NCBI GenBank assembly: GCA_000499405.2
Contig: HG738138.1
Location: 930,001 to 994,000, forward strand
DNA from: Onchocerca volvulus
Taxonomy: Eukaryota; Nematoda; Chromadorea; Rhabditida; Onchocercidae
DNA: 64,000 nucleotides
Direction: 5' to 3'
A program made the position numbers and the translations under genes. The notes under the pieces are model-generated. The model was not told the origin of the DNA. It did no database searches and saw only the letters and a list, made by a program, of their open reading frames with translations. The stretch's first letter is position 1; each line of letters starts with the position of its first letter. Of this stretch, positions 361-37,510 are shown one piece after another.

Positions 361-2204
361 GGCTTAGCAATCGTAGTATTTGTCTACGTGAAAACACAGA
401 CGACACCAATTTTTCCAGTTAGTTGTTATCTTAATGTTCTCATTATATTGGATCGTTCCGATTCTGTCAAAGGTGGATTTAATCGAAGTCGGAATTTTGT
501 TGTTAATGTTTCGGATGAACTCGATATCGGTCCTGCTACACACAGGGTTAGCTTCTGTGAAAGATTTTAAGCAAATAATCAGATTAGTAATTGATGAAAT
601 TCATTTCATATAATTTAATTAATCTAATTAACAAAAGCCTTTCTTTCTCCGCTAAATTGGCAAAGTTTTCTCAGTTGTGATTTTATTATAATTTGTACAA
701 TAATTTAATTTTTGACGAATAATAAATTGGCTAAATAAATTTATTGATTTGAATTATTATTCTAAGAATTGCGTGTTTTTCTATTGTTTAGTAACGTTAA
801 TTATGTTGATTGCTTAAATAATCTCATTGGAAAAGTTTAATTTTAGAAATTTTTCTTATGGAAATGATGACGGGAGATCGATCGCTGAATGTTCGCTTAA
901 ATTATGCAAGTTTTTACAAATTTTTGTGAAAATTCAGTATTTTTTCGTTTTCAGGTAGCAATGATCTTGTATTCTGGACTCAGTTATCGCCGTGAAGTAT
1001 TCAAATGGAATTTTGCTAAAAACAATCAAGAATTTAAAAAAACTGTGCTTGGATTAAGAGCTATCGGTGGTACAACAAATACGAGGTTTGAAAAATTTCC
1101 ATTTTAAATCGAAGTTTCTTACTTACTAGGATTTTAAACTTTAATTTCAAATTTTAATCTGACTGTATTCATTGAAAAATCGTTTTGATTTTTTAGTTCT
1201 TAAATTTGCTTCTTCTCGTTTCTGAATTTATCTTTAAAAAAAGGAAAAAGAAAAGACATTTTTTTTTATTTCTTTAGATGATAAAATCGACAGATTAATT
1301 TCCTGTTCAAATGAATATTTACTTCTCGAAAATATTTACACTTATGCTAAGTTTATCCATTGGTATATCAAAAATGATAAGAAGCACAGTAATCGATACC
1401 GATCAATAAATCCATTCTTCCTGTTTGATAAAAGACAATCAGTTTGGAATTTAAATGAAAAAAAAAAAGACTGCTTTTTCATATCAATCTTTTTGTTCAG
1501 GAAAGCACTGGAAATTGGGCTTGAATTAATGGAAACACGTAACAAATCAATTCCAACTCTTATTATGGTGGTTACGGATGGCCGAAGTGCGGATGATCCG
1601 AAAATTCCGGCTGAACAACTTCAGCGAATTCCGAATACATGGGTTTTTGCGGCAGCAACCGGAAATCCAGAAGCTGTTGACAAGTAAAATTCCATTTTCT
1701 GTTTTTTTTTTATTCGTTGAAAAGTTTAAAACACTTGAGAAAGTCGATCTTTTTTTTCAGTAATTCTGATTGATTAATTAAGTTGTAGAAATTAAAATCG
1801 TTTTAGATACATAAATCGAAATGTTGAATATTTTGAAATATTTTAAAAATAAATTCTGGAATTTCTTTTAATAGATAAAATGAGTAGATAATCTGAAAAG
1901 AGAATTCCATGATTCAAAAATTTCCAAAAACCCTTGCGGATTTTTTTTTTTTTTTTTTTTTTTCATTACATCGATGATCTCTTCATTCGATTTATTTGAA
2001 AATTTATCACTGATTATTATCTCGTTACTTAACACTTTACATCTCAGTCTTTTCCATTTGTTTTGGTCATTATAATCAATTTGAACTTGTCACTGATATT
2101 TCGTTGTATCATAGGGAGAAATCCATTTTATTCATATTTAAATTGCTCTCAGGAGAAGTAAGGGAAGTAAGGGAATTGCAATAAAGTTTTCATAATGGCT
2201 ATAA
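361..2204 (+). other. First vWA domain region and following intron
   Basis: Exons 361-546, 955-1085 and 1501-1683 carry the three metal-site loops of vWA domain 1: DRSDS, GGTTNT and VVTDG. All five classical coordinating positions (D-x-S-x-S, T, D) are present, so this domain looks metal-binding competent. Exon phases are 0, 2, 2. The domain's last helix is in the next exon at 2740. The rest of the interval is intron, including a 23-nt T run near 1941. Confidence 0.8.
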
Positions 2205-3946
2205 AATGATTTGAAACATTCGCAAACATATGAAAATGAAAATTCAAATTTGTATTTAAGTAATGACGCTGAATATTTGAATTTTATCTTATAAATGTAA
2301 ATTACGTTAAATAATTAAATATATGTATGTAAATTTTTTCACTTCATAGAAAATAACAAGAATGATGATCAATGAGAGGAGTAAAATTTCAAATTGGTTT
2401 ATAATTCATGGATTTTATTTCTCAATTGAGTTTCTTTTTTTTCTAATTTTTGATAGTTGCTAACAATGAGTTTAATTTTAATTTTCATTTTTTGTGCGAT
2501 TTTTTGTATGAAAAAAAAAAAATCGTGCATTTTTTCATAGTTGAAACTAATTCTAAAAGAAGCTTTTGAAGTGAAATTTTCGTCATTTTAACTAATCATC
2601 TCAATAATTAACATTTTCGTTGTGATATTTTCTATGTAAAACAAAGGAATAGTAAAATTATTAGAAATAATATTAAATTGGCAAAATTTTATATGATAAA
2701 ACAGATCATTGATAAGTTTGAAATTAAATTTTTTTCTAGAAAAGAACTGCTTCAAATAACTGGTAACATCAATCATGTTATTTTACAAAGTGGTCGAGAA
2801 TTAGCGGCTGATATTACGCGTAACTTACTTCGAAAAGCACAGGAAAAATGTCGCACAACAACGACGACAACAACAACAACCACAACAACCACAACAGCTA
2901 CCACGACTACAACAAATCCAATTTCAGGTATTTATATTTTATAATTAATTAATAAATAAATGATTCAGTCGGATAATCGGAGGAGTTGATTTAATTAATT
3001 AGTGAAATCAATCGCCAACTATAAGTTGGAAAAAGATTGCGACTACAAATCTGACACCAAAAGATAAGCTTATTTGCTAGCTAATTAAAAAGTTAAAACG
3101 ATATTGAATATGGACTAAATGCGCGTTTCAACCGATTTCACCTTAATTTGATTGAATTTACAGTCCAAAATTTCTATAAGCCATAATTACTGACAACTTA
3201 GCCGAATGGATTAATTAAGTTAGTATCTGATATCGTATTGTTTTTGGTGTATGATTTTAATATCAGTACGAAATGATGTACTTACTATTTTAAATGATAT
3301 TTCGTGCTATCCTTGAAAATTTATGATAATTTCAAAATAAAATTATAGGTTGTGAGCAAGATGTGGTACTTGTCATGGATTTGTCAACAACAACAAATCC
3401 TGTTTACCGGAAATACATAGAAATGGCTGAGGAACTAATCAATAGGCTTTTAATTGGCCGACGATTTAGTCGAGTAGCATTAATAACATTTAGTTCAGTG
3501 GGTAAAACACGTGCACAATTCAATTTGGACAGGTCAAAATTTTCTCATGAATTTGAATTACAAATTTCGAAAAATTTATAAAATGAAAACGAAAAATTAA
3601 ATTGAATTTCTTTTTTTTGTTTTATGAGTTTAACATCTTGATTATCTTAAGATTTTTTAAAATTAATTGTGCTTTCTGAATGAATGCCAAGTCCAAAAAA
3701 AAAGATGCAATTTAATCGATTGGCCGGTTTTACGCGAATTAATAATTCTTGAAAATAAAGAAAGGAAATGGATGATGGATAGATAGTTTGCTGATTTTGC
3801 CATTTCTTTTTTTTTTTAATTTTAATTTGCTCTTCTTTTTTATTTCAATCAATAACAAATTGAGCTTCTGGCAATTTCGATGCACACAAAATCAAATTTT
3901 TATGATTGAAATTTATAGAAATTTCCCGCATTTCATGATCAATAAA

Positions 3947-4012
<66 letters not shown>

Positions 4013-5337
4013 AAAGAAAAGTGGAATAGAATGAAAACTTCCATAAACATCATTTCTTTGTTTCTCATAATGAATTTTAATATGCCTAAATTTCTTGCCA
4101 TTAATGAATATATTTTGGATATTAGCCATATCGGAATATATAGTATTATTTACCAAATAGATTTGGAAAAAAAAAGTTTTATGCATTTTGCAAACACAAT
4201 TTCACATTGTTTTTCAGTCTTCATTTTTGTAAACATGAAACAAAAGTTGCAGTTAATTAATTAATGAACTTAGGTATTTCGATGGAAAAGATATCGTAAC
4301 TGCAATCCGAAGATTGGAATCCACAGGTGGCACAACTGCTGTTGGTTCGTTTTAACTTTTTTTTTATTAAATTTTTATAGATAACATTCTGCTTTTCTTT
4401 TGATATGACTTAAAAAAAAAAAAAAAGAAAAAAAAAAGGAAACGAATGAAACATTAATTGTTGAAAATTAAAAAAAAATTTCTTTGGATATTTTCGAATT
4501 TCATGCGGCAAAAAGAAATGTTTTAATCAATTATTGCAAATGAATAATATCAAATAATCTGAAATAAGTAATGATTCGTAATAAGGTTACAAATTTAATT
4601 ATTGTGATACATGGAAATTAATGAATTTTATAGGTGAGGGGATACGACTCGGAACTGAGCAACAGGATGAGAAACATGGCGGTCGACCGTTGAAAATCGC
4701 GAAAAAGGCCATGCTTGTATTTACGGATGGATGGAGTAATAAAGGACCGGATGTTGAAGAAATGAGTAGTCATGCTAAGGGAGCTGGATTCACTCTCTAT
4801 ACCGTAGTTTACGAGGTTTCTTTGCTTTTCCGGATTCATTGAAAGGGGGTATAATAGTTCTGATCTATGCATACAAAGCATTTCTTGAAACTTTATTAAA
4901 CTGAGAAAAAGCAATTAAGTAATGAGTTAAATAAATTTCCTTTCTTTCTCAGACTCAAAAATCGAATACTTATTTCAAACTTCAAATATTCAGTTCTAAT
5001 TGTCAGAGCCAAAAAATGATCTGACGATTAAGGCAAAACTGTGAATCGTTCCCAGCAGATCATATCCGTCATATAGCTGCACAGTTAATTATTGGAAGGT
5101 ACCAGAGCGAGCTAAATCATCAAGATGATTTCGATGATTGAATTCCAATAAATCTCGAGAAAAAACAAACTCTAAAATGATGTTTTATAGGGTGATGGAC
5201 GAGTTAATGCGGATACTCCTGGACTGAATCTTTATACCATTGAGGCGGTAGCAAATGATCAAAGACACATTTATAGTGAGCATAATTTCACGCAACTTGT
5301 TCAAGAACTCAGAAAACGTAACTTGCCATGCATATAA
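361..5337 (+). CDS. Secreted two-vWA-domain protein, 5' end missing
   Basis: Eight exons join in phase: 361-546, 955-1085, 1501-1683, 2740-2927, 3349-3532, 4274-4344, 4634-4815 and 5191-5337, giving 423 residues and a TAA stop. All introns are GT-AG. The first exon opens at an acceptor with a hydrophobic run (GLAIVVFVYV), probably the end of a signal peptide; no in-phase start exon is visible in bases 1-345, so the start lies to the left. Domain 1 (about residues 22-204) has the metal-site motif DRSDS (31-35), then GGTTNT and VVTDG. A Thr-rich linker follows. Domain 2 (231-422) has DLSTT (240-244), GGTTAV and VFTDG. Each domain is bracketed by cysteines (C22/C204, C231/C422), as is common in vWA folds. 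Such proteins usually bind ligands or matrix through a divalent metal. I cannot name an orthologue. Confidence 0.85.
2740..2927 (+). CDS. vWA exon 4: end of domain 1 plus Thr-rich linker
   Basis: The acceptor TTTTCTAG precedes the exon. It encodes the last helices of domain 1 (ITGNINHVILQSGRELAADI), ends that domain at C204, then runs into about 20 residues that are almost all threonine with one alanine, closing with NPISG. The tract is ACA/ACG/ACC/ACT repeats, so it should be length-polymorphic. Dense threonine suggests an O-glycosylated, mucin-like spacer that holds the two vWA domains apart. Confidence 0.85.
3349..5337 (+). other. Second vWA domain exons and C-terminus
   Basis: Exons 3349-3532, 4274-4344, 4634-4815 and 5191-5337 encode vWA domain 2. 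It opens GCEQDVVLVMDLSTT, so the first metal loop is D-L-S-T-T, with Thr in place of the final Ser. GGTTAV and VFTDGWSNKG follow. The protein ends in KRNLPCI. The penultimate cysteine probably pairs with C231 at the domain start. The 63-A run at 3948 lies in the intron between the first two of these exons. Confidence 0.8.
3948..4010. repeat. Poly(A) tract, 63 nt
   Basis: Uninterrupted A run inside an intron of the vWA gene, followed by A-rich GAAAAGAAAA. It is the longest homopolymer in the window and likely variable in length and error-prone in assembly. Confidence 0.95.
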
Positions 5338-24400: not shown

Positions 24401-27400
24401 AAGTTAATCAAATTATTTAATCTTAGTTAGTTGATTATAATACGATGATTGATTTTTACTTAATCTATCTAAAATTTTTCTACCCAGTATCACTCTATAT
24501 AATCATTACCATTCTACATAACCATGATAAGAATAGTTCAGGTAAGAATTTCACAAAAATTTTAAAAATGATAGAAAAATTTAAAAGAAATTAAAGAAAA
24601 CAAAAAACTTACATGCTCGTCGACGATTTTTTGTAACATCGAGACGAAACTGGTTACCAAATTTGTAATCTCTAAGCTTGGTATTTTCAGCGGTACACGT
24701 GTAGTAACGATTTGGCTTGAAATCAGATTCTTTAATGTGATGAAAATAAATGGTACCCTGAAAATGATGAATAATATGAATGAGAAAAAAATAAGCTTAC
24801 CACAGATATGGTCAATAATATGTACAGTTGAAGGATAAGTGTCATGAGGCAATGAGTTGCTGCTATTGTTGTCGTTTCGTTCTTCTTTTTCACCCAAATC
24901 ATTTATCCAATCCTATTTGATTAGCAAGTTTTGTTTAGCAAGTTTGGTATTATCCTATTTGCTATATTACTGCAGCAAATCGTCTTATTGTTGCTATTGG
25001 ATATCGTTGTGATCTGATGGAAAAGAATTCAGTAATCAGTTTTAAATTTTAAACTTAGAATACGATCAATTTACATGTAACATTAGTATATGTAGAGAAT
25101 AGAATGGAACAGAACAAGACGAGAATAGAGTAATGAGTAAATAAATGAAGATAAACAATCCTATGAGCATATCGTTGTTAAAACAAAACAAAACAAAATC
25201 ATTCTCATGCTTTCAATATTTGCGCTATGAAATTATTTCGCTTGATTTAATTGCCTGATTACCAGTTGGAATGAAATTTAGTTATAAAGTAAACATTCAA
25301 TTTTGTCCAAATATATGCAAATTCCCAGTGTTATAGCTATTATATTACTGCAACAATAGTACCAATACTAAAAGATAAACAAACAATAAACAACAAAACA
25401 ACAACAATACTATCAACTGAGAGAACAAAAGAGTGTCAGATGAGAAAAAAAAAACAAATAAAAAAAAAAAAAAAAAAACAAGTACAGACAAATGTTGTAA
25501 CATTAATAGCATCAGAGAATGATCAGGAAAGTTGAAATTGCTATTTATTAGAGAAGATGAACGAAGAGAACGGAAGAGGAATGAGGAAAAACTAAGAAAT
25601 ATGCGAGGAAAAAGGATGAGGATAAGGAGGACGAGGAGGAAAAGGAAGAGGAAGAGCAAAAGTAAGCAAGAGAGGGATGAAAGAAGGAAAATTCTCGATG
25701 AAAATAAAAGTAAAAAAAGACGAAAATGGAGAAGTATAAGAATAGGAATACAATAAATAATTTTATGAAAATGTCTGGAAAGTTTCATCTATTAGGAAAG
25801 GAAGCAAGTGAGCTATCATAAAAGGTAATAATAAGTACAATCAGTTTACTTATCATATTTAAGTTGTGGAATAACGAAAAAAGAATTGCACGCATTCCGC
25901 ACCAGACAAAACAGAATAAAAATGCGAGAATGAAATGGTTGCGGATTGGAAATTCAGTTTAACTAACGCTGATATTTTCAGAAATGAAGTGGAACAGAAA
26001 GAAGCTCATGCATATATGTAATATGTACATATGTAGATATATAGCAACACAACAACTGAGGCTGGTTGCGGTTACGTTCCGGTCATGTACTATGATGCGA
26101 CGACCGACGCCGTCGCCGTCGCCGTTTCATCGCCCTTTCCTGCCATTGCCATCTATTTGTCAATTACGCGACAAGAGCAGTCCCCAGTAGCATGCATACA
26201 GCAACAATAATCTATATGTTTGATTCAACTCATCTAGCTGCCTACTCTTCCAATTTTCTTAAGTTTCGAGAAAAAACCAGAGAACTTTTTTATTCCAAAA
26301 AAAAAAGTTTGCATTATTTGCAAATTTAGATATTTTTGATGAAAGGAAGAGAGTTAGTGATCAATTAATTATTAATCTGTTATTACAAATTTAATGATAA
26401 ATCAATTTCTTTCTTTCATATGATTGAAGTTTTGTAAAAAATTTCACTTTCTTTCCCTAATGTTATCATCATTTTTATCAAATCATCAGAGATAAGCATC
26501 GTAATAACAAATAATCCTATCTAATTATGATGATAATGACATTTTAAAGATGACAAATTGAAAAGGTAAAATGAAAAAGAGAAAAAGAAATGGAGAGGGA
26601 AGGAGAATGAAAGAAAAGGACGAAAGAGTTCACGATAAGGTCAAATGATATTGATTAAGATGATTTGAATGAATGCACAAATAACCTTCATTATCTTAAA
26701 ATGTACATCTGGTGTGCAAAAATACACACGTATACGTGCACAAGCAAAACAGACAGACAGGCTGAGACAGAGAGACGGATAGACAGACGTGTAGATACAT
26801 ATTGATAATAAACTTTGTAGATGAACTGTTTATACGTATTTCGGTACTTATATGGACTGTTCCACAATAAGCAAGCTGATTAGATAACAAACGTGTGATA
26901 ACAAACTTGTGATAAACAAACCAAATCTTTAATTTTAATTAATTCGATAGACGAGTTGGAATTTATTCAAATTTTCTTGTTTCAATTCTTTATCAAATAC
27001 AGCACGACTAGTTTATATGAAATTTCAAATTTTATTTTACTAATGAATGGCATATTTGAAAATACAACGTTAATAATTAAATATGAACTTCGAAAAAGAA
27101 AAAGAAAAAAAGAAGGGAACTTGAAACCCTTTCCTTTTTTCCAAAGTATAATTGAGAAATTTCATGATTTCTTTCAAGCTTATCGATAATTTTCAATTAT
27201 TCGAAACTTTTATCAATAGGCTTAAAATGATTTGCATGATTTACTAGATCTAGAGATGTGAAGATTGATACACATTAATTGATTAGTTGTATGATAAAAA
27301 TGATGATCGAAAAATTTAATTCTATGAAAGATTAAAAAAAGATCAAATGGAAAATGATTATCACATCGTGTTTCTTCTTCAAATTATCCAAGTGATTTGA

Positions 27401-28440
27401 GAAATGATCATCACAAGATGACCATTACAAAATATTACGAAGCAGAAGTTACACTCAATTATAGTCTCTTTCATCAGATATGTGAAAGATATTGAGCAGC
27501 TTTTAACTAATGTTGCTGGCCTCTCATCCCTAAAGCTTCATTGATTTTGATGAAATTTTCAAAAGCTCTATACTTTCATTCCGCTATCGCTTACCAAAAT
27601 GCTCTCTCTATTTGATTTAATTCAACTTTTTCAGAAAATTTCTTCCTTATCACTTTTTTCTTCCAAAAAAGAAAAAGAAAAAAAGTAAAGACTAAATTAA
27701 ATTTGAAGAAAAAAGAAAAATTTTAAATGAAAAATAGCAAAATTTTTACGGTTTCTCAAAAAAGTCCATTGGAAACTATTTGGAAAGAAAACTGGAAAGA
27801 ATTGACTGACATTTTGCACGATTTCAGAGCAGATTTAATGACCGGTGTTAATAAATGACCGGTATGAAACTTGTAAACAAGCTAATATAAAGTGGGATTA
27901 TTGAAAGAGAAGAGACAGGAGGAAGGGGAGGAGAAAATGGACAGCTGAGTTCAGTATTCAAGGAGAGAATTATAAATTAAGCGGAGGACACTTGGAGGAA
28001 TAATTCACTGGACTTTCCAATGTGATAAGCAAGATATAAATAAAATGAGAGAGACGGGAAGTGAAAAAATGACTAATTAATTAAAATCTCAATTTAACAA
28101 CGATTTTTTCACTTTCTCATAAAATGAAATATTTCTAATTTTCGTCCTGCAAAATCCCATCTCCTTCACTGGGCCAGCAATGCAATTGAATACACGCTAC
28201 AAACGTAACACTAAAACGTCATACGTGATAATACGTTTCTATATTTATTGCCACGTCTATGTTACGAAAAGATATAGCTACATTCATTCACGTAGTGATA
28301 TAAATTAATTAGAAAAAAAAAAGAAAGGAAAAGAAAAAAAGAAGAGAATGAAAAAGCGAAGATGAAACAACAAAACAGACTTCAACAAAATAAGCAAATC
28401 TTAAAAATTAAGCTTAACGTTTGTAAAGATAAGAGAGATG

Positions 28441-28472
<32 letters not shown>

Positions 28473-31400
28473 AAATGAGAATAAAGTGCAAAACTTGGAA
28501 CATTGCGAGACAAAAAAAAAAAAAAAAAGGACTAGTGAGCTACGAGAAGAGGGGGACTAAGGATTCAGAAATCAAAAATAAAAAAAAGTGAAATGAAATA
28601 TTTGTTGATTTAAAACTGATAAATAAAATGGATAATACTATAAGTGTAGGAAATATTTAAAAAAAAAAAATTCATTAAATTAAAAAGTTTTTCATTTTCT
28701 TTTAAGAAAAAAATTTTTTTTTATTTAAATTTTTAATGTGAATTTTTTTTTCTTCGGCAAAAAAAGTAAATAAGCTTCGAAGAACTTTTTTTTCGTTTTT
28801 TTCTTTTAAGAAATAAATTTATTTTGCTATTTCACATATAGTAATAAGCCTAAGTTTTATTCTCTTTCCAATATTCTTCCCTTATTCATTCCTTTCTCAT
28901 TTAACTAAATATTATATCATTTATTATTATTATTATTATTCAATTTATTTATTTCTACTAAACAATTCGAATTTTGCATATATTAAAACAATTAAATTGT
29001 ATTTTTGAACTTGAATAAAGTAGGAAGATATGAATGTAACGGGGTGGATCGGAGGAAGAAAAAGTAATGAAAAGATGAAGGAAAAATTGGGAAAGCGCGG
29101 GAGGCGGGGGAAAAATACGATATTCGGGAGAGGAGGAGGAAGATGATGATGAGTGTTTCAATGAATTAAAATTTAAACACAATCTTTAAATCAAGAATAA
29201 TAAAAGAATGAATTAAGCGAGAAAAGAGAGAAATACGAATATTCAACTTAATCATTTGTCATAAGATAAATAAATTAAGAAACAAACTTCAACAGTCTCT
29301 TTACATTTTCCATTCTATTTTGTTTATCAAAATTGCTCTTACGAAAGGTCGTAAAATGCATCAATTTATCGATAAATAGTGGATGATAATAGGTCTAGGG
29401 AAAGAATAAAAATGCTTCAAATTTCATTTTGAAAACAAAAGCTTCAATATTGCTTTAACTTTCAATGATTTGTTATTTCATGAATTCAACTTACATTTTG
29501 TATCATTTTCCTTCAATCTCAGTACAAAATAAAACGAAAAAAGAAATATTTGCATAGGTTTACTTTAATAATTCTAATCTATAATGATTGAAGCATACAA
29601 CTAATTGCAATATCATTTTGCTAAATTTATTGCTAGAATTAAATTTAATCAATAGAAATTGATGAATGATGATTACACTTATACAAATTTTGAACAAAAT
29701 CTGAATATTCCTGCCAAAGAGGGAGAGAGAGAAAGCAGATTAATAAAAAAAAAAGACACGAAAATCTTAAAATTTTTGGAAAAGAGTAAAAAAAGGAGGG
29801 AGAGGAAAAAAAGGAAAAGAAAAAGAGCAAAGTAATGAAAAATGAAAATGTTAATGAGTTTAGCTATTTTGGGAGGAAATGAAATTCAACATAATATCAT
29901 CAATTTTTAATGGATTTTTGCCCCCAAAAAAAAAGCAGTTAAAAAGAATCTATAAAAAATGAAATAAATACAATTTTAAAAAATAAAACTGACTACAATG
30001 AATAATGATATAGTAGATGGGAAAGGTAAATTATAAATTCTAAAGTGATTACCGATTATTACAGGTATTGACATTTTCTTCATCCCATACTTTGACGGAA
30101 TGGAAAAAAAAGAGAAAAAGTGGATGGAGAGGGCAAATACCAAACTATTCATTCATACCTTGATAGAATTTAAATTGAAAAAAAAAAAAGAAAAAAAAAA
30201 AGGAAGATAGGGGTATCAATTTTATTCATACCTGAATGAATTGAAAAAGGGAAGTTATAAAAAGGGAATGGGAGAAAAACTGTATCGTATTGTTGTCATC
30301 GTTAACTACGATTTCCTTCCATTTTACATTTGCAAGTAATTTTTTTGAGAAAAAAGAACTTTTTCTCGAAAAAATTTGGAAATAAAACAAATTATCATAT
30401 GGGACTAATTAATTGCTTGTATTTGAGAGTTTTATTGTAAGGAATATTTCACATATCAATCAATAATGGGTACTCAACAATGTTACACCACCACATATCG
30501 CCTTGAACCGAAACAATTAATTAAACCCCTAAGAATGTAATTGTAACACTAATTTGTGATAAAATTTAACACGCATACTATCTCATTTTCATTTGAAAAA
30601 TTTCGAGAATTTTAAAGATAACCTGCCGGAGTCACAGTAATGATTACCTAATCAAAAGGCATTATAACAATGTTTGCATATTTCTTCTTATAATTGTAAA
30701 GTTTGAATATTATATATTATAAACTAGAAATAATTACACGACCAATTCCGGGATTAACAAGACTATTCGGATCCTTCTAAGAGATATTTTACAAAATTTC
30801 GAAATACTAAATTTATTCTACTACTTGGCATTTAATTATCAATCTCTGAAAAAGAAAAATAATCTACTTGAAATATGATTTCATTTGCACTACAAAAGTA
30901 TCGAAAAATAATCAGCTCGAGAAAAAAAAGGGATCCAAGTTGATTTATTCCGAAAAAAACAAACTTTTTTCCATCATACTATCTAAAGTTCATTCAATAA
31001 TATTTCATCAGATAATCGAGTTCAATTTTTTAACATTCTTAATATTTTCATCATAATCTTCGAAATAATGCGATAATGGATCGAAAAGTTTCGGAACACA
31101 GAACTTCTAACTCGTTAAATTCAATTACTTGTTCCAAAATAAAAGAATATCTCAGAAATAATATAGTATTCAAAAAGGAATATATATAATCGTTAAATTA
31201 AAGCATATTATCACTGGAATAATTTCTTTCTATCTGCTAAACTCACAACATGAAACATGTTTATCAAAAATATCCTCAAAATATAATCCGTAATAATATT
31301 TATCATTAAATAACAAAATTAAAATTTTTCAAACAAAATACGAAAAAAATTACTAGAATTAGAGTAAAATTTAAATTTATATTTCGAAAATAAAAACAAA

Positions 31401-33613
31401 AACAAAAAAAGGAAAAAGAAAAGATAGCAATAGAAAAAAAAATTTTTTTTTTTTGAAAGGAGAAGAGAAATATAAATAAAATTCTTTAAAAAAAAAAGAT
31501 TAAAAAAAAGGAAAAGGAAGTTTATTGAATGAGTCTACTAAAAAGAAATTCTAAACAGAAAAAAAAAGTATTTTTGAAAAAAAATATATTTATTCGGGAC
31601 ATTTACCATAAAGATGGCACCAAGAGAACGACACCGTATTTGTTTATTGCTCCAAATTGGATATAGATTAAAAAAAAAAAGAAAAAAAAATTTACAATGA
31701 GTTACACATGGGTATAATGTGAAAAGTTTATTGGTTCATCAATTGGAAGAAATAAATAAAAGAGAATATAAAAATATAAATAAAAGGGAATATTTCAAAA
31801 ATAAAATTTAAGATTTTAAAATTTCTGTTAGAACAAATTAATTAATATTTCTTAGTATGTTAATATACCATAAAATGAATTTCTGGTTCATTTTATTACT
31901 TTATAACGGATAAGATTTTAATACGTATTGCAAATACAGCAATAACAAATCCAATGATATCTTTATCATTTGTCATTTCTACATCATTCCTCCTCTCCTT
32001 GTCCGATTAAGCAATACAAGTAATAATTGAAAATTTTTATTTAATTGATCAAATTTATTAAATAATACGAATGACAATCATATTTATTTTATATGATAAA
32101 TTTGGACGAAATTTAATTAAAATTAATTTCGTTCAATTTAACTAAGAACTTTAATTTGGTATCATTCATTAACGTTGTATTGTAAAGTCATTCTAGTTAA
32201 GTCATAATTTTTTTATTTCTTTTTTTTCTTCCAAACTTACCTTTCTTTGCTATTGCCTTTAATTTGATAATGGCAGTAGTGAAAATTCAAATGTTTGAGC
32301 ATTAACATAAAACTTTTACAATGATTTACATTTAAAAGTGCAAAAAATAATGGAAATTTTTCAAATGCCAATAGCGAATATTAACGAATTAAATCAATTC
32401 CATTCCATAATGTTATTCACTTAAACTGTGCATATAAATTATTTGTAAATGAGTTAATAAATATGCATATATTAAATATAAACATATATGAGTGATACTT
32501 ATATATCGATATATCTATAAATGTGTCAATAAAATAAGATAAGGATAGCAAGCATGAACTGAAGGGAATGTCTAGAAGCACTTTTGAAGTGATATTAGGA
32601 TATTGAAGAAAATAATGAAATTTCATAATATTAAAAGCAAGTTATGAACTTTATTAACATTCTAAAATAGTTGCTAATCGTAAACAAAAGGAAAAAAAAG
32701 AAAAAATTTCTTACAATAATCCGTACTTTTTAAGAGAGATAGTAAGGCTTTAAACATCGTAGTAAAATATAAAAGGTAAATATAGATCGATATAGGCTTG
32801 AGAATGAGAAAATGAAAAAAAATTTTTCTATTTTCTTTATGCAAAATAAGAAAAAAAAAAAGAATTTCATTTTGCTGCTACTTTAGCAAAAGAAAAAAAT
32901 GAGAGAAAGTAAAAAAAAAAAAGAGCATTTTCCCAATGGAAATAAATGTGTTAAAGGCTAATTCAGAATCAATAAAATGAGAATCAAATTTTTTTAAACC
33001 ATTCCTTCTTTTTTTTTTCTTCCCTCAACTAGGCTTTTTATCTCGTAGTAATGCCAAAAATGTCCTATCCAGTATCAGTAATAAAATTAGGCCTTCACTC
33101 TTTGTTTGGCTTAAAATAGCTTAATTTCAAGCTTTTCAAAATAAACTTGTTTTACTGGAAACAGGTATGTCCCTCTCTCTACTCTTTTTCTAATTCTCAC
33201 TCCTTTTCCTTTTTATTATTCATTGTAAGAAAATAATCCTTCGAACTTAAAATAATATTAGAAACATCGATGATACTGTTGATAAATACTTTTTTTGATC
33301 AAAGGTCATTTTAAGTTTTAAGATCATCGATGACAATGAGATGTGCCATTCCTTTGCTAAGAGTATAACTATATAACCTAGGCTTGTTTATCAAGTGTTT
33401 CAAATATATAACTATGCCTAAGATGTCAGACTTTACTGGCATAGACTAAAAAAGTACTTTTAGCGGTGTTATGAGCCAAGCTAGTGGAAATAGGACAGAA
33501 TTGTCATATATATATATATACATATCGAAAGGTTATTCTCAAGAGAGAATTACAACAATCTGTTCCCATTCCTTCATTGCTGTAAAGTGTCAATGTCAGA
33601 TCATCTTTGCGGG

Positions 33614-33648
<35 letters not shown>

Positions 33649-35205
33649 GTTTGGAATAATTGGAGACAAATAGAAGAAAATCTTTGGGGAGAATGAATGA
33701 CAGGGAAAAGGAAAACAGGTCATCTTCGTCAATTACTAAAACAATTCGAGAATTACTTCAAAAATAACTGAATTCAAAAATTACTTTAAAGATAACTGAA
33801 TTCATCTTTAAGCAAAATTTACACCCATCTTAATGATGAATAATAACATAAGCCAAATTATTACAATCAAGGAAGTGAACGAAATTCAGCAAATGCTAAT
33901 CATTCAATTAGACAATTTAATATCACTCAAGTACTAACAGATTAATGAGACAATTTCTGATTATTTTAAAAATGGAAAAATCAACCAAAGAGAGGAAGAT
34001 TGGAAATTTAATGCTGAAACTAATTTCATTAAGAAGAAAATTTTTTCTTGAATGACAATAAATAAATATATTTTTCGCAAAATGGAGAGTTCAATGAAAA
34101 AAAAAGAAAAATTGCTTTGTTTAAGAGAAAAATTCTGAAAATAATCTTGATTCGAGAATTTTCAGCAAACAGAATCTATTTATTATGATGATGCTGTAAA
34201 TTCTTCTCTTGCACTATGTAATAGGCACTTCTCCCCCCTGCACGACATATGATTCAATCCAAAAATTAAACTTCGTCAATTAAAGGAAAAAATAAGGAAG
34301 AAAACAATACTAGTTTATTTATAATAGTGATTCACGTATCAAAATGATTTCGGTCATTAATTATGCCAATTTTCAATGATGGCAATCATAGCAAAGTGAT
34401 ATTAAATTAGAAATAATTTTAAAATAATTGATAAACAGAAAAAAAACTGAAACATAATTTTGTAAAGATTGATAAGAACGATGGATAGGACTGGATATAT
34501 CTTGCATGTAAGCGATAAATTTTACATTCAGAAGTAACATTGTGCCTTAATTAACTTTTCTATTTGATCAGATAGATGATCAGATAGAAAAGTGAATTAA
34601 TTAAGACTAATGATTTAATCTTTGATTACTACATATAACTAGTAAGTATTGCATTTGAAATGATTTCAATTTTCCTTTAGCACTAGGCGAAATTTCCTTC
34701 ATCACTAGACATATTTTAATTTATGAACAAAAAAATAAAACTTTTTGCTTCATTCTTAAAATCTAAAACAAATTAGTGAATTTAGATTTCAAAAGAGTTA
34801 TTAAGATGCATTAATTATATTTTAACAACAATTTTTAATCAAATATCGAAAAAATTTGAAAAGTTCTAATAATTATAGTAACAACTGTATCATTAATTAT
34901 TCTATTTTTTGACCAAAAATATTAATTTAAATTTGAATATTTATCCTGTCATATATTTCAATATGTTATGAAGAAGTTACTTCTCATAGTATCTCAAAGA
35001 TTGCGATTTTTCATTCCGTTTACTTATAGAAATAATGCGAAAAGATTTGCGGAGGAAAGAAAGGGCCAAGTAAAGTAAATTATAATAAAAAATTACAGTA
35101 GAAAGTTACAGAATACCTTTCCACAATCGTTCGATTACTTTCACTATATCCTTTCAACTGCACATATGTATTCAATGATAATTACCATCATAGAAAAAGA
35201 AAAAA

Positions 35206-35236
<31 letters not shown>

Positions 35237-37510
35237 GGAAAAAGGAAAAACTAGCCAATTCATTTGTTGAAATATGTGAACTATTGATTGAATCAAATGA
35301 TCCTTCTTCATCACCCTGAAATTTCATCTTTTAAAATCGTTAATTTTATTAAATTCTCCAAAAATTATTGATTTGTTGCTACTGAAATATAAGAAATAAT
35401 TGGTTACAAGATTTCTTTGACGAACAATTGAAATGTTATTATTTGAATTATTAAAAACAAATTTTCCAGCAACAAAACAAGCACATCGGTAATTTAACTA
35501 TAATTATCACCAGCTTTGAAGGAATGATATATTGTATTCAATTTTAATCAGAAATTTATTTGAAATATTTGCAAAGAAATTAAAAGAAAAATGGATGAGA
35601 TAATATAATGAGAAAAACCGTTGCTAATTTCCATTTATATTAACCTGGGTTTTCATCTTGAGAAAATTTTTAATTTGGATCGATAAACTTCACTTTTCTA
35701 TCAGTTTTCCACAAATCCTCTACTTTGGAAAATTCGAAAATGGAATGAAAACTAAACTAGAAAAAAGAAAGAAATAAAAAGTACACCTTAAAAATCCAAT
35801 AAACTCGAGCAGGTGGATTTGATTCGGGTGGCGTGCAATTCCGCTGATATGGATCACCCAAATCGACACGTATAATTTCTGGTTCAGCTTTTGGAAAGTA
35901 TCGTATCCCTGAAATTTTAACTACTATTTTTATGATAAAGATAGTAAAACAAATATGAATGAAGTGAAACAAATAATAGAACGAACAAATCTTCAAATTC
36001 TAATTCCTTCAAATAAACAAAATTGTTTAAAATGGTTTCGCACTAATTATTTCAAATTCTCGTCAATACTTTCTGAATTTAAGTAATATATTGATTAATC
36101 TGAAGCATTTAAAATATCTGACGGAAACAATTTCTATCCAACAATTGATTTCCAAATAGATGATCATCTACCTCATCTCCTTACCGATAAAAATATTTGA
36201 TTTTAGGTTGACAATTTTCTACCGAATAATTAAAATAATCAACAATTATCAGTTATAATTTCAATTTCAATGTCATCGAAATATGCAAGTCTTAAAAAAG
36301 AATAAGTAATTGATAATTTACGGAACTTTTGACTTTTAGTATGACAATAGTAAAGGAATTCGAAGGAACACTAACATGTTTGTTTTAGAGTAATCTTCTC
36401 GGATATAGCAGTACCATTATCATTTGTCGCTTCACACTGATAAACACCTTCATCGGCAGCAGTTAATTTAGAAAAAACAAATGATCCTTCGCTCGGACGT
36501 TGAGCGATACGATCCGAATACATTGCTAAATTGAACGGTTTACCGTTCTTTTTCCATTTATATCTATAAATTAAATCTTTTTTTAATTAAAAATTAATAT
36601 TGTTTTCAACTTTTTTCTCATCTTTCAATTTTTATTACATTCAAATTTCATGTCATCTATTGTAAACTGACCTTGCAAATCTCTTCAAACATTCATATTT
36701 AATTTAGTCCTTTCAACGTATATCAATAATGTATGACTACGTGATACATCCATTTATCATTAGCCGTATATACGTCAAAGGCATGGAAATCTTTTTAATG
36801 CATGTTATATGCAAATTTTTTAATTTAATATTTGTCGGAAAATTTTGAAAGATGTAATTATTGTAAACAAGAGGTGTTAAAGGTCAAGAAGCGCGAAGAT
36901 AATTTCAAAGAGATCAACGAGCCGATAAACATATTTACCGCCAAAACGACAAACATGCTTGCCGCCAAAACGCTCCAGTTAACTAATAAATAAACACGAG
37001 AAGAACTCTTTTCCCCAATATCCGAAAAATAAAAAACATACCCAGGAGATGGATTACCATCAGCAATGCATCGTAGTGTTCGTTCTTTTAAATAATCTAA
37101 ATTAAGGCCATTGGAAGCCTGGGTTGATTCTAACGTAAAATAAATAGTAGGATCGTTAGGCTCGTGAATGAAACGCGGTGGCGCTGGTATTGTGGACCAA
37201 TCAATAATGTTACATTTTACTGAAAAATAAATAAATACATAATTTGAAACATTGACTGATAAATTTTAATACTATCCATATTTATATCTCGCGCATTTCA
37301 AATTAGATATTAGTTTTTCTTTTTTTTTTCTTTTTTCGTATTATTTAAATTTGGTCCAACTCAAATAGAAGATTTCTAGAAGGTTCTAATTTTAAAAAAT
37401 ATCCATGCTATTCATTTGAATATAATAACACTGAAAGAATGTAACTTACCACAGCAAATAAGTATGAAGATCAATAACCTATAACGTATGAACCTCGTTA
37501 TTAATGTCAT
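9624..37510 (-). CDS. sax-7: SAX-7 / L1CAM-family cell adhesion molecule, long form
   Basis: Homophilic neural adhesion receptor of the plasma membrane. It comprises 28 coding exons (5' to 3'): 37450-37510, 37042-37219, 36376-36563, 35787-35908, 30738-30776, 24613-24757, 22786-22885, 20454-20638, 20054-20179, 19644-19817, 19230-19418, 18915-19004, 18376-18506, 17804-17963, 17235-17355, 16917-17064, 16545-16760, 16286-16393, 15995-16183, 15819-15908, 15464-15668, 14971-15157, 14747-14898, 11880-12050, 10669-10809, 10168-10366, 9804-9919, 9624-9703. The total is 4011 nt, 1336 residues; human L1CAM is 1257. Order: signal peptide, Ig 1-6, FnIII 1-5, helix about 1212-1234, tail. Diagnostic tail strings are [33 protein letters not shown] and C-terminal STFV. 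Every splice junction keeps phase. In C. elegans SAX-7 maintains neuronal and dendrite position; function here is inferred from family. The 30738 microexon is the only uncertain coding exon. Confidence 0.95.
10669..12050 (-). other. sax-7: SAX-7 fifth FnIII domain (two exons)
   Basis: Exons 11880-12050 and 10669-10809. The first encodes [20 protein letters not shown] and [16 protein letters not shown], the FnIII B and C strands with the conserved Trp. The second encodes [11 protein letters not shown], the typical F-strand Tyr signature, and a linker to the membrane. The 1070-nt intron between them (10810-11879) shows no other exon. Confidence 0.9.
12051..14746 (-). other. Long sax-7 intron (2.7 kb) before FnIII-5
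   Basis: This region has no coding exon. It holds A-rich runs (12300-12330, 12365), a TA microsatellite at 12643-12662 and a pyrimidine-rich stretch on the plus strand at about 13130-13600. The flanking exons join in phase across it (C|TG). Confidence 0.75.
14747..15157 (-). other. sax-7: SAX-7 fourth FnIII domain, exons 14971-15157 and 14747-14898
   Basis: The domain opens [11 protein letters not shown], then [20 protein letters not shown] (B-C strands, Trp present), and ends [20 protein letters not shown] (E-F strands). A 72-nt GT-AG segment at 14899-14970 splits it. That segment is a multiple of three and stop-free, so retention would insert 24 residues without breaking the frame. I treat it as an intron, because removal gives a continuous FnIII ([12 protein letters not shown]). 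Confidence 0.88.
14899..14970 (-). other. sax-7: 72-nt in-frame intron in FnIII-4
   Basis: Donor GTTAAT, acceptor GTTTTTAG. Length is divisible by three and no stop codon occurs in the sax-7 frame, so retained transcripts would stay translatable. Confidence 0.75.
15464..16183 (-). other. sax-7: SAX-7 third FnIII domain with furin-type cleavage sites
   Basis: Exons 15995-16183 (second half), 15819-15908 and 15464-15668. The middle exon encodes [19 protein letters not shown], a strongly acidic loop, then RSKR (914-917). The next exon begins LRRLKREVS, giving a second R-x-K-R (923-926). L1-family proteins, including nematode SAX-7, are known to be cleaved by a proprotein convertase in this domain into two fragments that stay associated. 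The domain ends [20 protein letters not shown]. Confidence 0.9.
15995..16760 (-). other. sax-7: SAX-7 second FnIII domain exons
   Basis: Second half of 16545-16760, all of 16286-16393, first half of 15995-16183. Key segments are [20 protein letters not shown] (B-C strands with Trp), [25 protein letters not shown] (F-G strands) and [12 protein letters not shown], which matches the conserved end of FnIII-2 in L1 proteins. All introns are phase 0. Confidence 0.92.
16545..17355 (-). other. sax-7: SAX-7 first FnIII domain exons
   Basis: Exons 17235-17355, 16917-17064 and first half of 16545-16760. It begins DVPNPV, typical of the Ig6/FnIII-1 junction, continues [20 protein letters not shown] (C strand) and ends [20 protein letters not shown], a strong FnIII F-G signature shared across L1 proteins. 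Confidence 0.93.
17804..18506 (-). other. sax-7: SAX-7 Ig domain 6 (two exons)
   Basis: Exons 18376-18506 and 17804-17963. The cysteine pair is C557 ([10 protein letters not shown]) and C611 ([11 protein letters not shown]), with Trp in YEWRVNGK between them. Confidence 0.93.
18915..19418 (-). other. sax-7: SAX-7 Ig domain 5 (two exons)
   Basis: Exons 19230-19418 and 18915-19004. The cysteine pair is C464 ([10 protein letters not shown]) and C514 ([14 protein letters not shown]), with W476 in VNITWD. An N-glycosylation sequon (NVT) overlaps the first strand. Confidence 0.93.
19644..20179 (-). other. sax-7: SAX-7 Ig domain 4 (two exons)
   Basis: Exons 20054-20179 and 19644-19817. The cysteine pair is C364 ([10 protein letters not shown]) and C421 ([13 protein letters not shown]). 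In the C strand the usual core Trp is Phe (ISFFKNG, F376), a conservative but uncommon change. Confidence 0.92.
20454..22885 (-). other. sax-7: SAX-7 Ig domain 3 (two exons)
   Basis: Exons 22786-22885 and 20454-20638, joined across a 2.1-kb intron as [16 protein letters not shown]. The cysteine pair is C273 and C322 ([11 protein letters not shown]). The second exon's donor is GTCGTT, weaker than the others, but reading on meets a stop within six codons, so a donor is needed here. Confidence 0.92.
20639..22785 (-). other. sax-7 intron, 2.1 kb
   Basis: No coding exon. It contains several A/T homopolymers (a 38-A run near 21446-21483) and a GA-rich stretch near 21653-21676. Confidence 0.75.
22886..24612 (-). 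other. sax-7 intron, 1.7 kb
   Basis: AT-rich with no supported exon on either strand. Confidence 0.75.
24613..24757 (-). CDS. sax-7: SAX-7 exon: second half of Ig domain 2
   Basis: Starts in phase 0 with [13 protein letters not shown] and gives the second Ig2 cysteine in [20 protein letters not shown] (C217). It ends at a basic linker KNRRRA that leads into Ig3. The acceptor is ATTTTCAG and the donor GTAAGT. Two different upstream exons are phase-compatible: the 30738 microexon (long form) and the 24801 exon (possible short form). Confidence 0.93.
24801..24845 (-). CDS. sax-7: Possible alternative first exon of a short SAX-7 form
   Basis: ATG followed by 14 more codons reads [15 protein letters not shown], a hydrophobic signal-peptide-like start. 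It ends at a good GTAAGC donor. A 43-nt intron ending ATTTTCAG joins it in phase 0 to exon 24613-24757. C. elegans sax-7 is known to make long and short forms that differ at the N terminus, the short one lacking the first two Ig domains. The predicted short form would begin with half of Ig2. The first ATG of the long form also encodes MTLI. The call is inferred from sequence, and no transcript evidence is available. Confidence 0.5.
25532..25745. repeat. Polypurine/polypyrimidine tract, about 200 nt
   Basis: The plus strand is almost entirely A and G (GAGGACGAGGAGGAAAAGGA and similar), so the sax-7 sense strand is pyrimidine. The plus-strand frame translates to a run of Arg, Lys and Glu that I regard as a composition artefact, not a gene. 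Confidence 0.75.
26041..26185. promoter_or_regulatory. GC-rich island with GCCGTC repeats
   Basis: A sharp local rise in GC within very AT-rich intron DNA, centred on GACGCCGTCGCCGTCGCCG. It lies about 1.2 kb upstream of the possible short-isoform first exon, where an internal promoter would be expected. Regulatory function is inferred. Confidence 0.35.
28441..28471. repeat. Poly(A) tract
   Basis: About 31 consecutive A in a sax-7 intron; another 17-A run follows within 80 nt. Confidence 0.9.
30738..30776 (-). CDS. sax-7: Candidate 39-nt microexon in Ig domain 2
   Basis: Acceptor ATCTCTTAG, then AAG through CGT (13 codons, [13 protein letters not shown]), then donor GTAATT. It is phase 0 at both ends and fits between VYWIFK (35787-35908) and GTIYFHH (24613-24757). 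L1 proteins have a similar-length stretch here between the Ig2 Trp and the next strand, so some coding sequence is needed in the 11-kb gap. This is the only in-phase candidate I found by eye; a better one could exist. Confidence 0.55.
33617..33645. repeat. (TA)n microsatellite
   Basis: About 14 TA units; a shorter TA run lies at 33506-33521. Confidence 0.9.
34547..34605. repeat. Inverted repeat / hairpin
   Basis: Arms CTTTTCTATTTGATCA and TGATCAGATAGAAAAG, extended outward by TTAATTAA on one side and TTAATTAAG on the other after a small bulge. The loop is about 6 nt. It lies in a sax-7 intron. Confidence 0.7.
35787..35908 (-). CDS. sax-7: SAX-7 exon: first half of Ig domain 2
   Basis: Encodes [20 protein letters not shown], the first Ig2 cysteine C167 ([18 protein letters not shown]) and the core W180. 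The NPPARVYW motif is characteristic of L1-family Ig2. It ends in phase 0 at donor GTGTAC. Confidence 0.95.
36376..37219 (-). other. sax-7: SAX-7 Ig domain 1 (two exons)
   Basis: Exons 37042-37219 and 36376-36563, joined as [15 protein letters not shown]. The cysteine pair is C71 (RTLRCIADG) and C123 ([13 protein letters not shown]), with core W83. The start [13 protein letters not shown] is typical of L1 N-termini. The intron between contains a 24-nt tandem duplication (36927-36972). Confidence 0.94.
37450..37510 (-). CDS. sax-7: SAX-7 start exon with signal peptide
   Basis: ATG at 37510 opens [20 protein letters not shown], a basic N-region then a hydrophobic core, continuing VKC in the next exon. 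The donor is GTAAGT, phase 1. It is the only signal-like ATG in phase with Ig1. Confidence 0.9.

What the first reader, a model, noticed from the sequence alone, without database searches (positions are those of the whole stretch)
24801..24845. Internal signal-peptide exon suggesting a short SAX-7 isoform that starts inside Ig2
Seen: an ATG, 15 codons of signal-like sequence, a good donor and a 43-nt intron joining in phase to the second half of Ig2. Known: C. elegans sax-7 makes long and short forms that differ at the N terminus. Inferred: this species uses the same strategy, with the short form starting from an internal promoter in an 11-kb intron region.
Basis: partly seen in the sequence, partly recalled or inferred. 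Interest (0 to 1): 0.75.

Follow-up and report, generated by a model that had tools for sequence, protein, structure and literature searches.

The report
Start exon of short SAX-7 protein

Summary
The exon is almost certainly real: the filarial counterpart of the C. elegans sax-7S first exon. The minus strand carries a sax-7 gene, modelled as a 28-exon long form (1343 aa) and a short form (1160 aa). The exon lies at the 3' end of a 10,498-nt intron inside Ig2. Nearly the same leader starts predicted proteins of Dirofilaria, Brugia, Onchocerca flexuosa and Wuchereria. Hydrophobic leaders at the same place occur in ascarids, strongylids, Caenorhabditis and Plectus.

Two corrections. Site strength favours 24757; intron length and deep conservation favour 24715, which I prefer.

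No transcript data were available: promoter, splicing and expression are inferred. Mostly ordinary. Fresh points: the age of the start exon, conflicting filarial annotations, and a probable GC donor for the long form.

The parts
24801..24902 (-).
   Evidence: similar leaders in P0001, P0002, P0135, P0142, P0144, P0145
24716..24800 (-). 85-nt intron of the short form if the distal acceptor (ttcaag|CCA) is used; preferred here
   Evidence: 14 relatives' models have this junction
24758..24800 (-).
   Evidence: 5 relatives' models have this junction with a leader
24613..24757 (-). Ig2 second-half exon shared by both forms; its first 42 nt ([14 protein letters not shown]) would be skipped in the short form if the distal acceptor is used
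24758..35255 (-). 10,498-nt long-form intron that holds the S exon
35256..35315 (-). Ig2 middle exon [20 protein letters not shown] (long form only), with probable GC donor TTG|GCTAGT
   Evidence: 20 codons, as in the Strongyloides, Steinernema hermaphroditum and C. elegans long forms
35787..35908 (-). Ig2 first-half exon (long form only)
36376..36563 (-). Ig1 second-half exon (long form only)
37042..37219 (-). Ig1 first-half exon (long form only)
37450..37510 (-). Long-form first coding exon with its own hydrophobic leader, [20 protein letters not shown]; acceptor ttctttcag 6 nt before the ATG suggests spliced-leader addition
   Evidence: similar to B. malayi P0125
9624..22885 (-). Shared exons 22885-22786 to 9703-9624: Ig3-Ig6, FN domains, transmembrane segment, tail with FIGQY

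Best explanation
24902-24801 is the first coding exon of the short SAX-7/L1CAM isoform of a filarial nematode close to Onchocerca. An mRNA starting inside the 10.5-kb long-form intron begins with this signal-peptide exon. It is spliced to the middle of Ig2, most likely at the acceptor inside the shared exon (24715). The membrane-anchored product would begin with the last part of Ig2 ([11 protein letters not shown]...), then Ig3-Ig6, the FN domains, the transmembrane segment and the ankyrin-type tail. Shown: gene structure and open frames in the window; the leader and both junction types in relatives' gene models. Inferred: that the exon is transcribed, where its promoter lies, and which acceptor is used. 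Proposed mechanism for acceptor choice: the S donor lies so close to the proximal AG (43 nt here) that the intron would be too short, so splicing goes to the AG 42 nt further on, which keeps the frame, whereas the long-form intron ends at the first, stronger AG.
For: Leader identity to the window, gaps not counted: 32 of 34 aligned residues in O. flexuosa and in D. immitis, 24 of 33 in B. pahangi and in B. malayi, 23 of 34 in W. bancrofti, 24 of 34 in the unnamed P0145, 14 of 27 in Thelazia. The short model matches D. immitis P0001 from end to end, 92.5% over 1165 alignment columns. Of 75 records scanned, 48 have the Ig2 F-strand motif; 14 of these have a hydrophobic leader joined at the distal position: D. 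immitis, B. pahangi, Parascaris, Necator, Aphelenchoides avenae, Steinernema glaseri, C. bovis, Parelaphostrongylus, C. briggsae, Mesorhabditis spiculigera, Nippostrongylus, a C. elegans record, Plectus and a Panagrolaimus (sorted by hand; in S. glaseri and Nippostrongylus the leader lies inside a longer model). The query carried the proximal junction, so it did not favour distal hits. For the distal site: 43 nt would be the shortest of 50 introns, the other 22 of this gene being 72 nt or more and 27 estimated introns in chaperonin genes of this genome 77 nt or more. B. malayi P0135 and P0145 read through the gap in frame, which makes it 39 and 51 nt there. If the distal site is used, [14 protein letters not shown] serves the long form only, yet it is identical in 5 filarial-type records (P0135, P0142, P0144, P0145, P0146) and 11 of 14 in Strongyloides.
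Against: No RNA reads. Relatives' proteins are mostly predicted models, which can copy each other. The distal acceptor is weak: -2.0, below all 27 of the gene's own acceptors (-0.8 to 7.6), while the proximal one scores 6.0 (the matrix was built from those same 27, the proximal one included, so it leans that way). The closest species, O. flexuosa (P0142), and also W. bancrofti, Gongylonema, Thelazia and Panagrellus are modelled with the proximal site. L. sigmodontis (P0003) reads the exon in another frame and Loa (P0146) lacks the hydrophobic part. No acceptor scoring above 2 lies in the 400 nt before ATG 24902, so spliced-leader addition to the short form has no sequence support; but 6 of the gene's own 27 score below 2 too. 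No signal-peptide predictor was run.
Confidence: 0.88

Rival explanations
1. The exon is: the short form uses the proximal acceptor (24757) through a 43-nt intron and keeps [14 protein letters not shown]. (A variant of the best explanation, so the odds overlap with it.)
For: Strong acceptor ttttcag (score 6.0); 5 relatives' models have this junction with a leader, including O. flexuosa and W. bancrofti.
Against: 43 nt would be the shortest of 50 introns examined. Gaps of 39 and 51 nt in P0135 and P0145 are read through rather than spliced in their models. The Caenorhabditis, strongylid, Parascaris and Plectus junction is distal.
Confidence: 0.3
2. The exon is not a separate start. It is a chance open frame, or an internal exon included in long transcripts, as in the S. 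glaseri and Nippostrongylus models.
For: Two models place the leader inside a longer protein (P0018, P0037).
Against: An in-frame TAA sits directly before ATG 24902, so inclusion in the long frame would end it. The leader is conserved as protein across filariae. C. elegans has a sax-7S-specific frameshift allele in its short-form first exon (PMC7252388).
Confidence: 0.05
3. Filariae no longer make a joined long form: the Ig1-Ig2 part is a separate small gene and the short form is the main SAX-7.
For: Loa, B. malayi, Gnathostoma, Dracunculus, Ascaris and others carry the Ig1-Ig2 part as a separate small record. No full-length long filarial protein was among the hits (clusters at 90% identity; members are not shown). 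The Ig2 middle exon lacks a GT donor at the expected place.
Against: A GC donor with good flanks (TTG|GCTAGT) sits at the homologous exon end, and joining there restores a complete Ig2. [14 protein letters not shown] is still conserved. C. bovis and Mesorhabditis show the same split, so it is likely a gene-finder habit.
Confidence: 0.12

Closest known systems
C. elegans sax-7S first exon and SAX-7S isoform (PMC7252388 whole text; PMC3400552 passages)
   Same: Internal first exon coding a signal sequence, specific to the short form; [quoted passage not shown] one gene makes both forms.
   Different: The leaders are not alike outside a hydrophobic core. The window's long form probably uses a GC donor; the C. 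elegans donor was not seen here, nor was the C. elegans SAX-7S protein itself (only long forms and the duplicate P0137).
Filarial database records P0001 (D. immitis), P0002 (B. pahangi), P0135 (BMA-SAX-7 isoform a, B. malayi), P0142 (O. flexuosa), P0144 (W. bancrofti)
   Same: Nearly the same leader joined to the same part of SAX-7.
   Different: They disagree on the junction: distal (P0001, P0002), proximal (P0142, P0144), or gap read through (P0135).
Vertebrate L1 family, e.g. neurofascin (PDB 7ok5, 3p3y)
   Same: Residues 48-429 of a 429-residue Ig1-Ig4 query align (that query still held a wrong Ig2 middle exon).
   Different: No comparable short form was looked for outside nematodes.

Membership tests
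SAX-7/L1CAM (LAD-1) orthologue | Ig domains, FN3 domains and the Bravo_FIGEY tail (FIGQY, ankyrin-binding; that the tail separates it from LAD-2 is recalled) | tested here: met
   Pfam on the long model: Ig_3 5 stretches, I-set 5, fn3 3, Bravo_FIGEY 72.6 bits against a cut-off of 23.8. The C. elegans neuroglian records P0025 and P0026 were among the hits, with a FIGQY-type tail. LAD-2 was not searched for.
SAX-7/L1CAM (LAD-1) orthologue | Exactly six Ig and five FN domains | tested here: inconclusive
   Pfam counts only 5 Ig and 3 fn3 stretches that pass on their own; six Ig were assigned by eye and by alignment to relatives.
SAX-7S-type isoform | Own first exon with ATG and signal peptide, downstream of the Ig1 exons | tested here: met
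   24902-24801, hydrophobic core [11 protein letters not shown] (mean hydropathy 2.45), in-frame stop upstream. No signal-peptide predictor was run.
SAX-7S-type isoform | Can splice in frame so that Ig1 and most of Ig2 are lost and Ig3 onward kept | tested here: met
   Both acceptors keep the frame into the shared exons.
SAX-7S-type isoform | Transcribed in the animal | not testable with these tools
   No RNA data.
SAX-7S-type isoform | More adhesive than the long form | not testable with these tools
   Stated for C. elegans (PMC3400552 passages).

The most novel reading that the evidence does not exclude
In nematodes from Plectus to Caenorhabditis, the long/short choice of SAX-7 is built into splice geometry. 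A start exon sits too close to the normal Ig2 acceptor, so the short transcript is forced onto a weak acceptor inside the exon, within a lysine codon before the F strand. In onchocercids the long form additionally depends on a GC donor followed by a long T-rich tract. The short protein then begins with a half-Ig2 carrying a cysteine without its usual partner, which could link SAX-7S molecules.
Probability: 0.35. Interest if true: 0.5.

Novelty: new member of a known kind. Interest (0 to 1): 0.33.

Why it matters
It extends the SAX-7 long/short pair to filarial parasites and, through the Plectus record, to an early branch of nematodes (branching order recalled). It shows that public filarial models of this exon conflict. 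[quoted passage not shown]

Tried and rejected
I first took 35157-35110 ([16 protein letters not shown]) for the Ig2 middle exon, by analogy with recalled L1 sequence. Rejected when relatives showed [19 protein letters not shown] at 35315-35256. with stricter thresholds gave no candidate.

No AG in 25300-24904 scores above 2. Left as unsupported.

Pfam on the 52-aa piece of the shared Ig2 exon gave no Ig match, only Big_14 at E 0.11, below its cut-off; the whole long model does match. The PDB search with C. briggsae P0034 gave contactins, neurofascin, L1 and others (17 sequences at E 1e-20); no SAX-7 was among the names.

A fold of D. immitis P0001 from 9 sequences had mean pLDDT 64. Residues 1-97, that is leader (helix 22-36), half-Ig2 and linker, are below 50. 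Too weak to decide whether the remnant folds; no second fold or structure search was run.

Rfam found nothing in the window at gathering scores. Literature: searches listed no work on a filarial sax-7 short form (one search lists 30 of 3,905 papers and one search lists 12 of 1,856, so those two saw a part only). PMC9239158 (passages) is about LAD-2. PMC4642636 (passages) names sax-7 among genes upregulated in the D. immitis uterus, isoform not given in the passages. PMC2490688 was seen as the start of an abstract in a listing. The library holds open-licence papers only, so absence there is weak.

Full report
What was checked. The window is 64 kb of contig C3 of a 94.7-Mb, 115-contig genome, 23-35% GC in 2-kb steps. 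On protein identity it is an onchocercid close to Onchocerca: one O. flexuosa record (P0130) is 100% identical over 90 aa, and D. immitis is 93% over 1126 aa. The species is inferred, not given.

Gene. I mapped the minus-strand gene exon by exon from open frames and splice sites, corrected it with relatives, and obtained a long form of 28 coding exons and 1343 aa and a short form of 1160 aa. Boundaries rest on consensus sites and homology, not on RNA. The long form has its own leader exon at 37510-37450, with an acceptor 6 nt before its ATG. Pfam finds Ig, fn3 and the Bravo_FIGEY tail above cut-off, though only 5 Ig and 3 fn3 stretches pass on their own. The gene is sax-7.

The exon. The frame extends to ATG 24902, preceded directly by TAA. 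Close relatives carry the whole leader (37-39 residues). Identity to the window, gaps not counted: O. flexuosa 32 of 34 aligned residues, D. immitis 32 of 34, B. pahangi and B. malayi 24 of 33, W. bancrofti 23 of 34, the unnamed P0145 24 of 34; the more distant Thelazia 14 of 27. So 24902 is the better start.

The junction. I scanned 75 records (P0001-P0048, P0121-P0147; nematode or unnamed); 48 carry the Ig2 F-strand motif and 27 do not. The script sorted the 48 into 18 distal, 11 proximal or read-through, and 19 long. By hand, P0020 and P0022 are long forms, making 21. Of the remaining 27: 14 have a hydrophobic leader joined at the distal site; P0019 joins about three residues later; 5 have a leader at the proximal site (P0006 Thelazia, P0030 Panagrellus, P0138 Gongylonema, P0142 O. 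flexuosa, P0144 W. bancrofti); 3 read through the gap or start in it (P0007, P0135, P0145); and 4 fit neither (P0003 reads the exon in another frame, P0146 lacks the hydrophobic part, P0036 and P0143 are truncated). Plectus (P0139) is among the distal ones. Among filariae alone the models conflict: D. immitis and B. pahangi distal, O. flexuosa and W. bancrofti proximal, B. malayi read-through.

Two measurements pull apart. Site strength, in a matrix built from the gene's own 27 acceptors (the proximal one included, so it is not neutral), gives 6.0 for the proximal site and -2.0 for the distal one, the latter below all 27. Intron length goes the other way: the 22 introns of this gene listed run from 72 to 10,498 nt (one of them, listed at 427, shrinks by 15 nt with the corrected exon), and 27 chaperonin-gene introns in this genome are estimated at 77-473 nt (estimated from profile coordinates of neighbouring matches). 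Forty-three nt would be the shortest of the 50. I favour the distal site at about 0.7; both may be used. The distal AG lies in an AAG lysine codon; AAG makes up 18 of 73 lysine codons in the long model, so its presence is only weak support.

Link to C. elegans. PMC7252388 (whole text) targets the sax-7S first exon with an sgRNA. Placed after an A it reads ATG GGG TTA CGA GAG ACG, MGLRET, in line with the paper's statement that five residues remain before the frameshift. C. briggsae P0034 starts MRLRETMGLGG and joins at SDRYYTC. A 164-aa C. elegans record (P0137) starts MITMGLRETMGRGG and has the same junction; from SDRYY on it is 82% identical over 130 aa to C. elegans P0025, so it looks like a partial duplicate of the sax-7S start. 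[quoted passage not shown]

The long form. The Ig2 middle exon ends at the homologous position with TTG|GCTAGT. Positions 3-6 of this donor score 3.4, where the gene's 25 GT donors run from -2.3 to 4.2 (it was itself in the matrix), and another donor of the gene reads TTG|GTTAGT. A Loa record ends ...NELA (P0124), consistent with GC there too. The nearest downstream GT (35251) would break the frame into GTIYFHH. The start of the abstract of PMC2490688, as listed, says GC donors are enriched in alternatively spliced genes, nematodes included. The Ig1-Ig2 part appears as separate small records in several species, most likely split gene models.

Function, by inference from C. elegans: a more adhesive short form made beside a long form. 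Nothing here tests it. The Ig2 F-strand cysteine is present in both forms; in the short form its usual partner (RNC in the first half of Ig2) is absent. A weak structure model leaves this stretch without a confident fold.

Noticed in passing
35256-35250 (minus strand): Long-form Ig2 middle exon appears to use a GC donor (TTG|GCTAGT), probably shared with Loa loa.
   Followed up: partly
35250-35192 (minus strand): A nearly pure T tract of about 58 nt follows the GC donor directly (A-rich on the plus strand); T-rich tracts after weak donors can promote their use (recalled).
   Followed up: no
P0137 (C. elegans, 164 aa): A C. elegans record that looks like a diverged duplicate of the sax-7S start exon plus half-Ig2 and Ig3 (82% over 130 aa).
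   Followed up: partly
P0121-P0131: The Ig1-Ig2 part of sax-7 is recorded as a separate small protein in several nematodes, probably because gene finders split the gene at the short-form start.
   Followed up: partly
P0135, P0145: B. malayi SAX-7 isoform a and an unnamed record read the short gap in frame (39 and 51 nt), probably annotation errors.
   Followed up: partly
about 1238-4839, plus strand: Open frames resembling von Willebrand factor A domains (by eye), on the strand opposite to sax-7 and beyond its 3' end.
   Followed up: no
37516-37510 (minus strand): Good acceptor (score 4.9) 6 nt before the long-form ATG, a typical place for spliced-leader addition (recalled).
   Followed up: no
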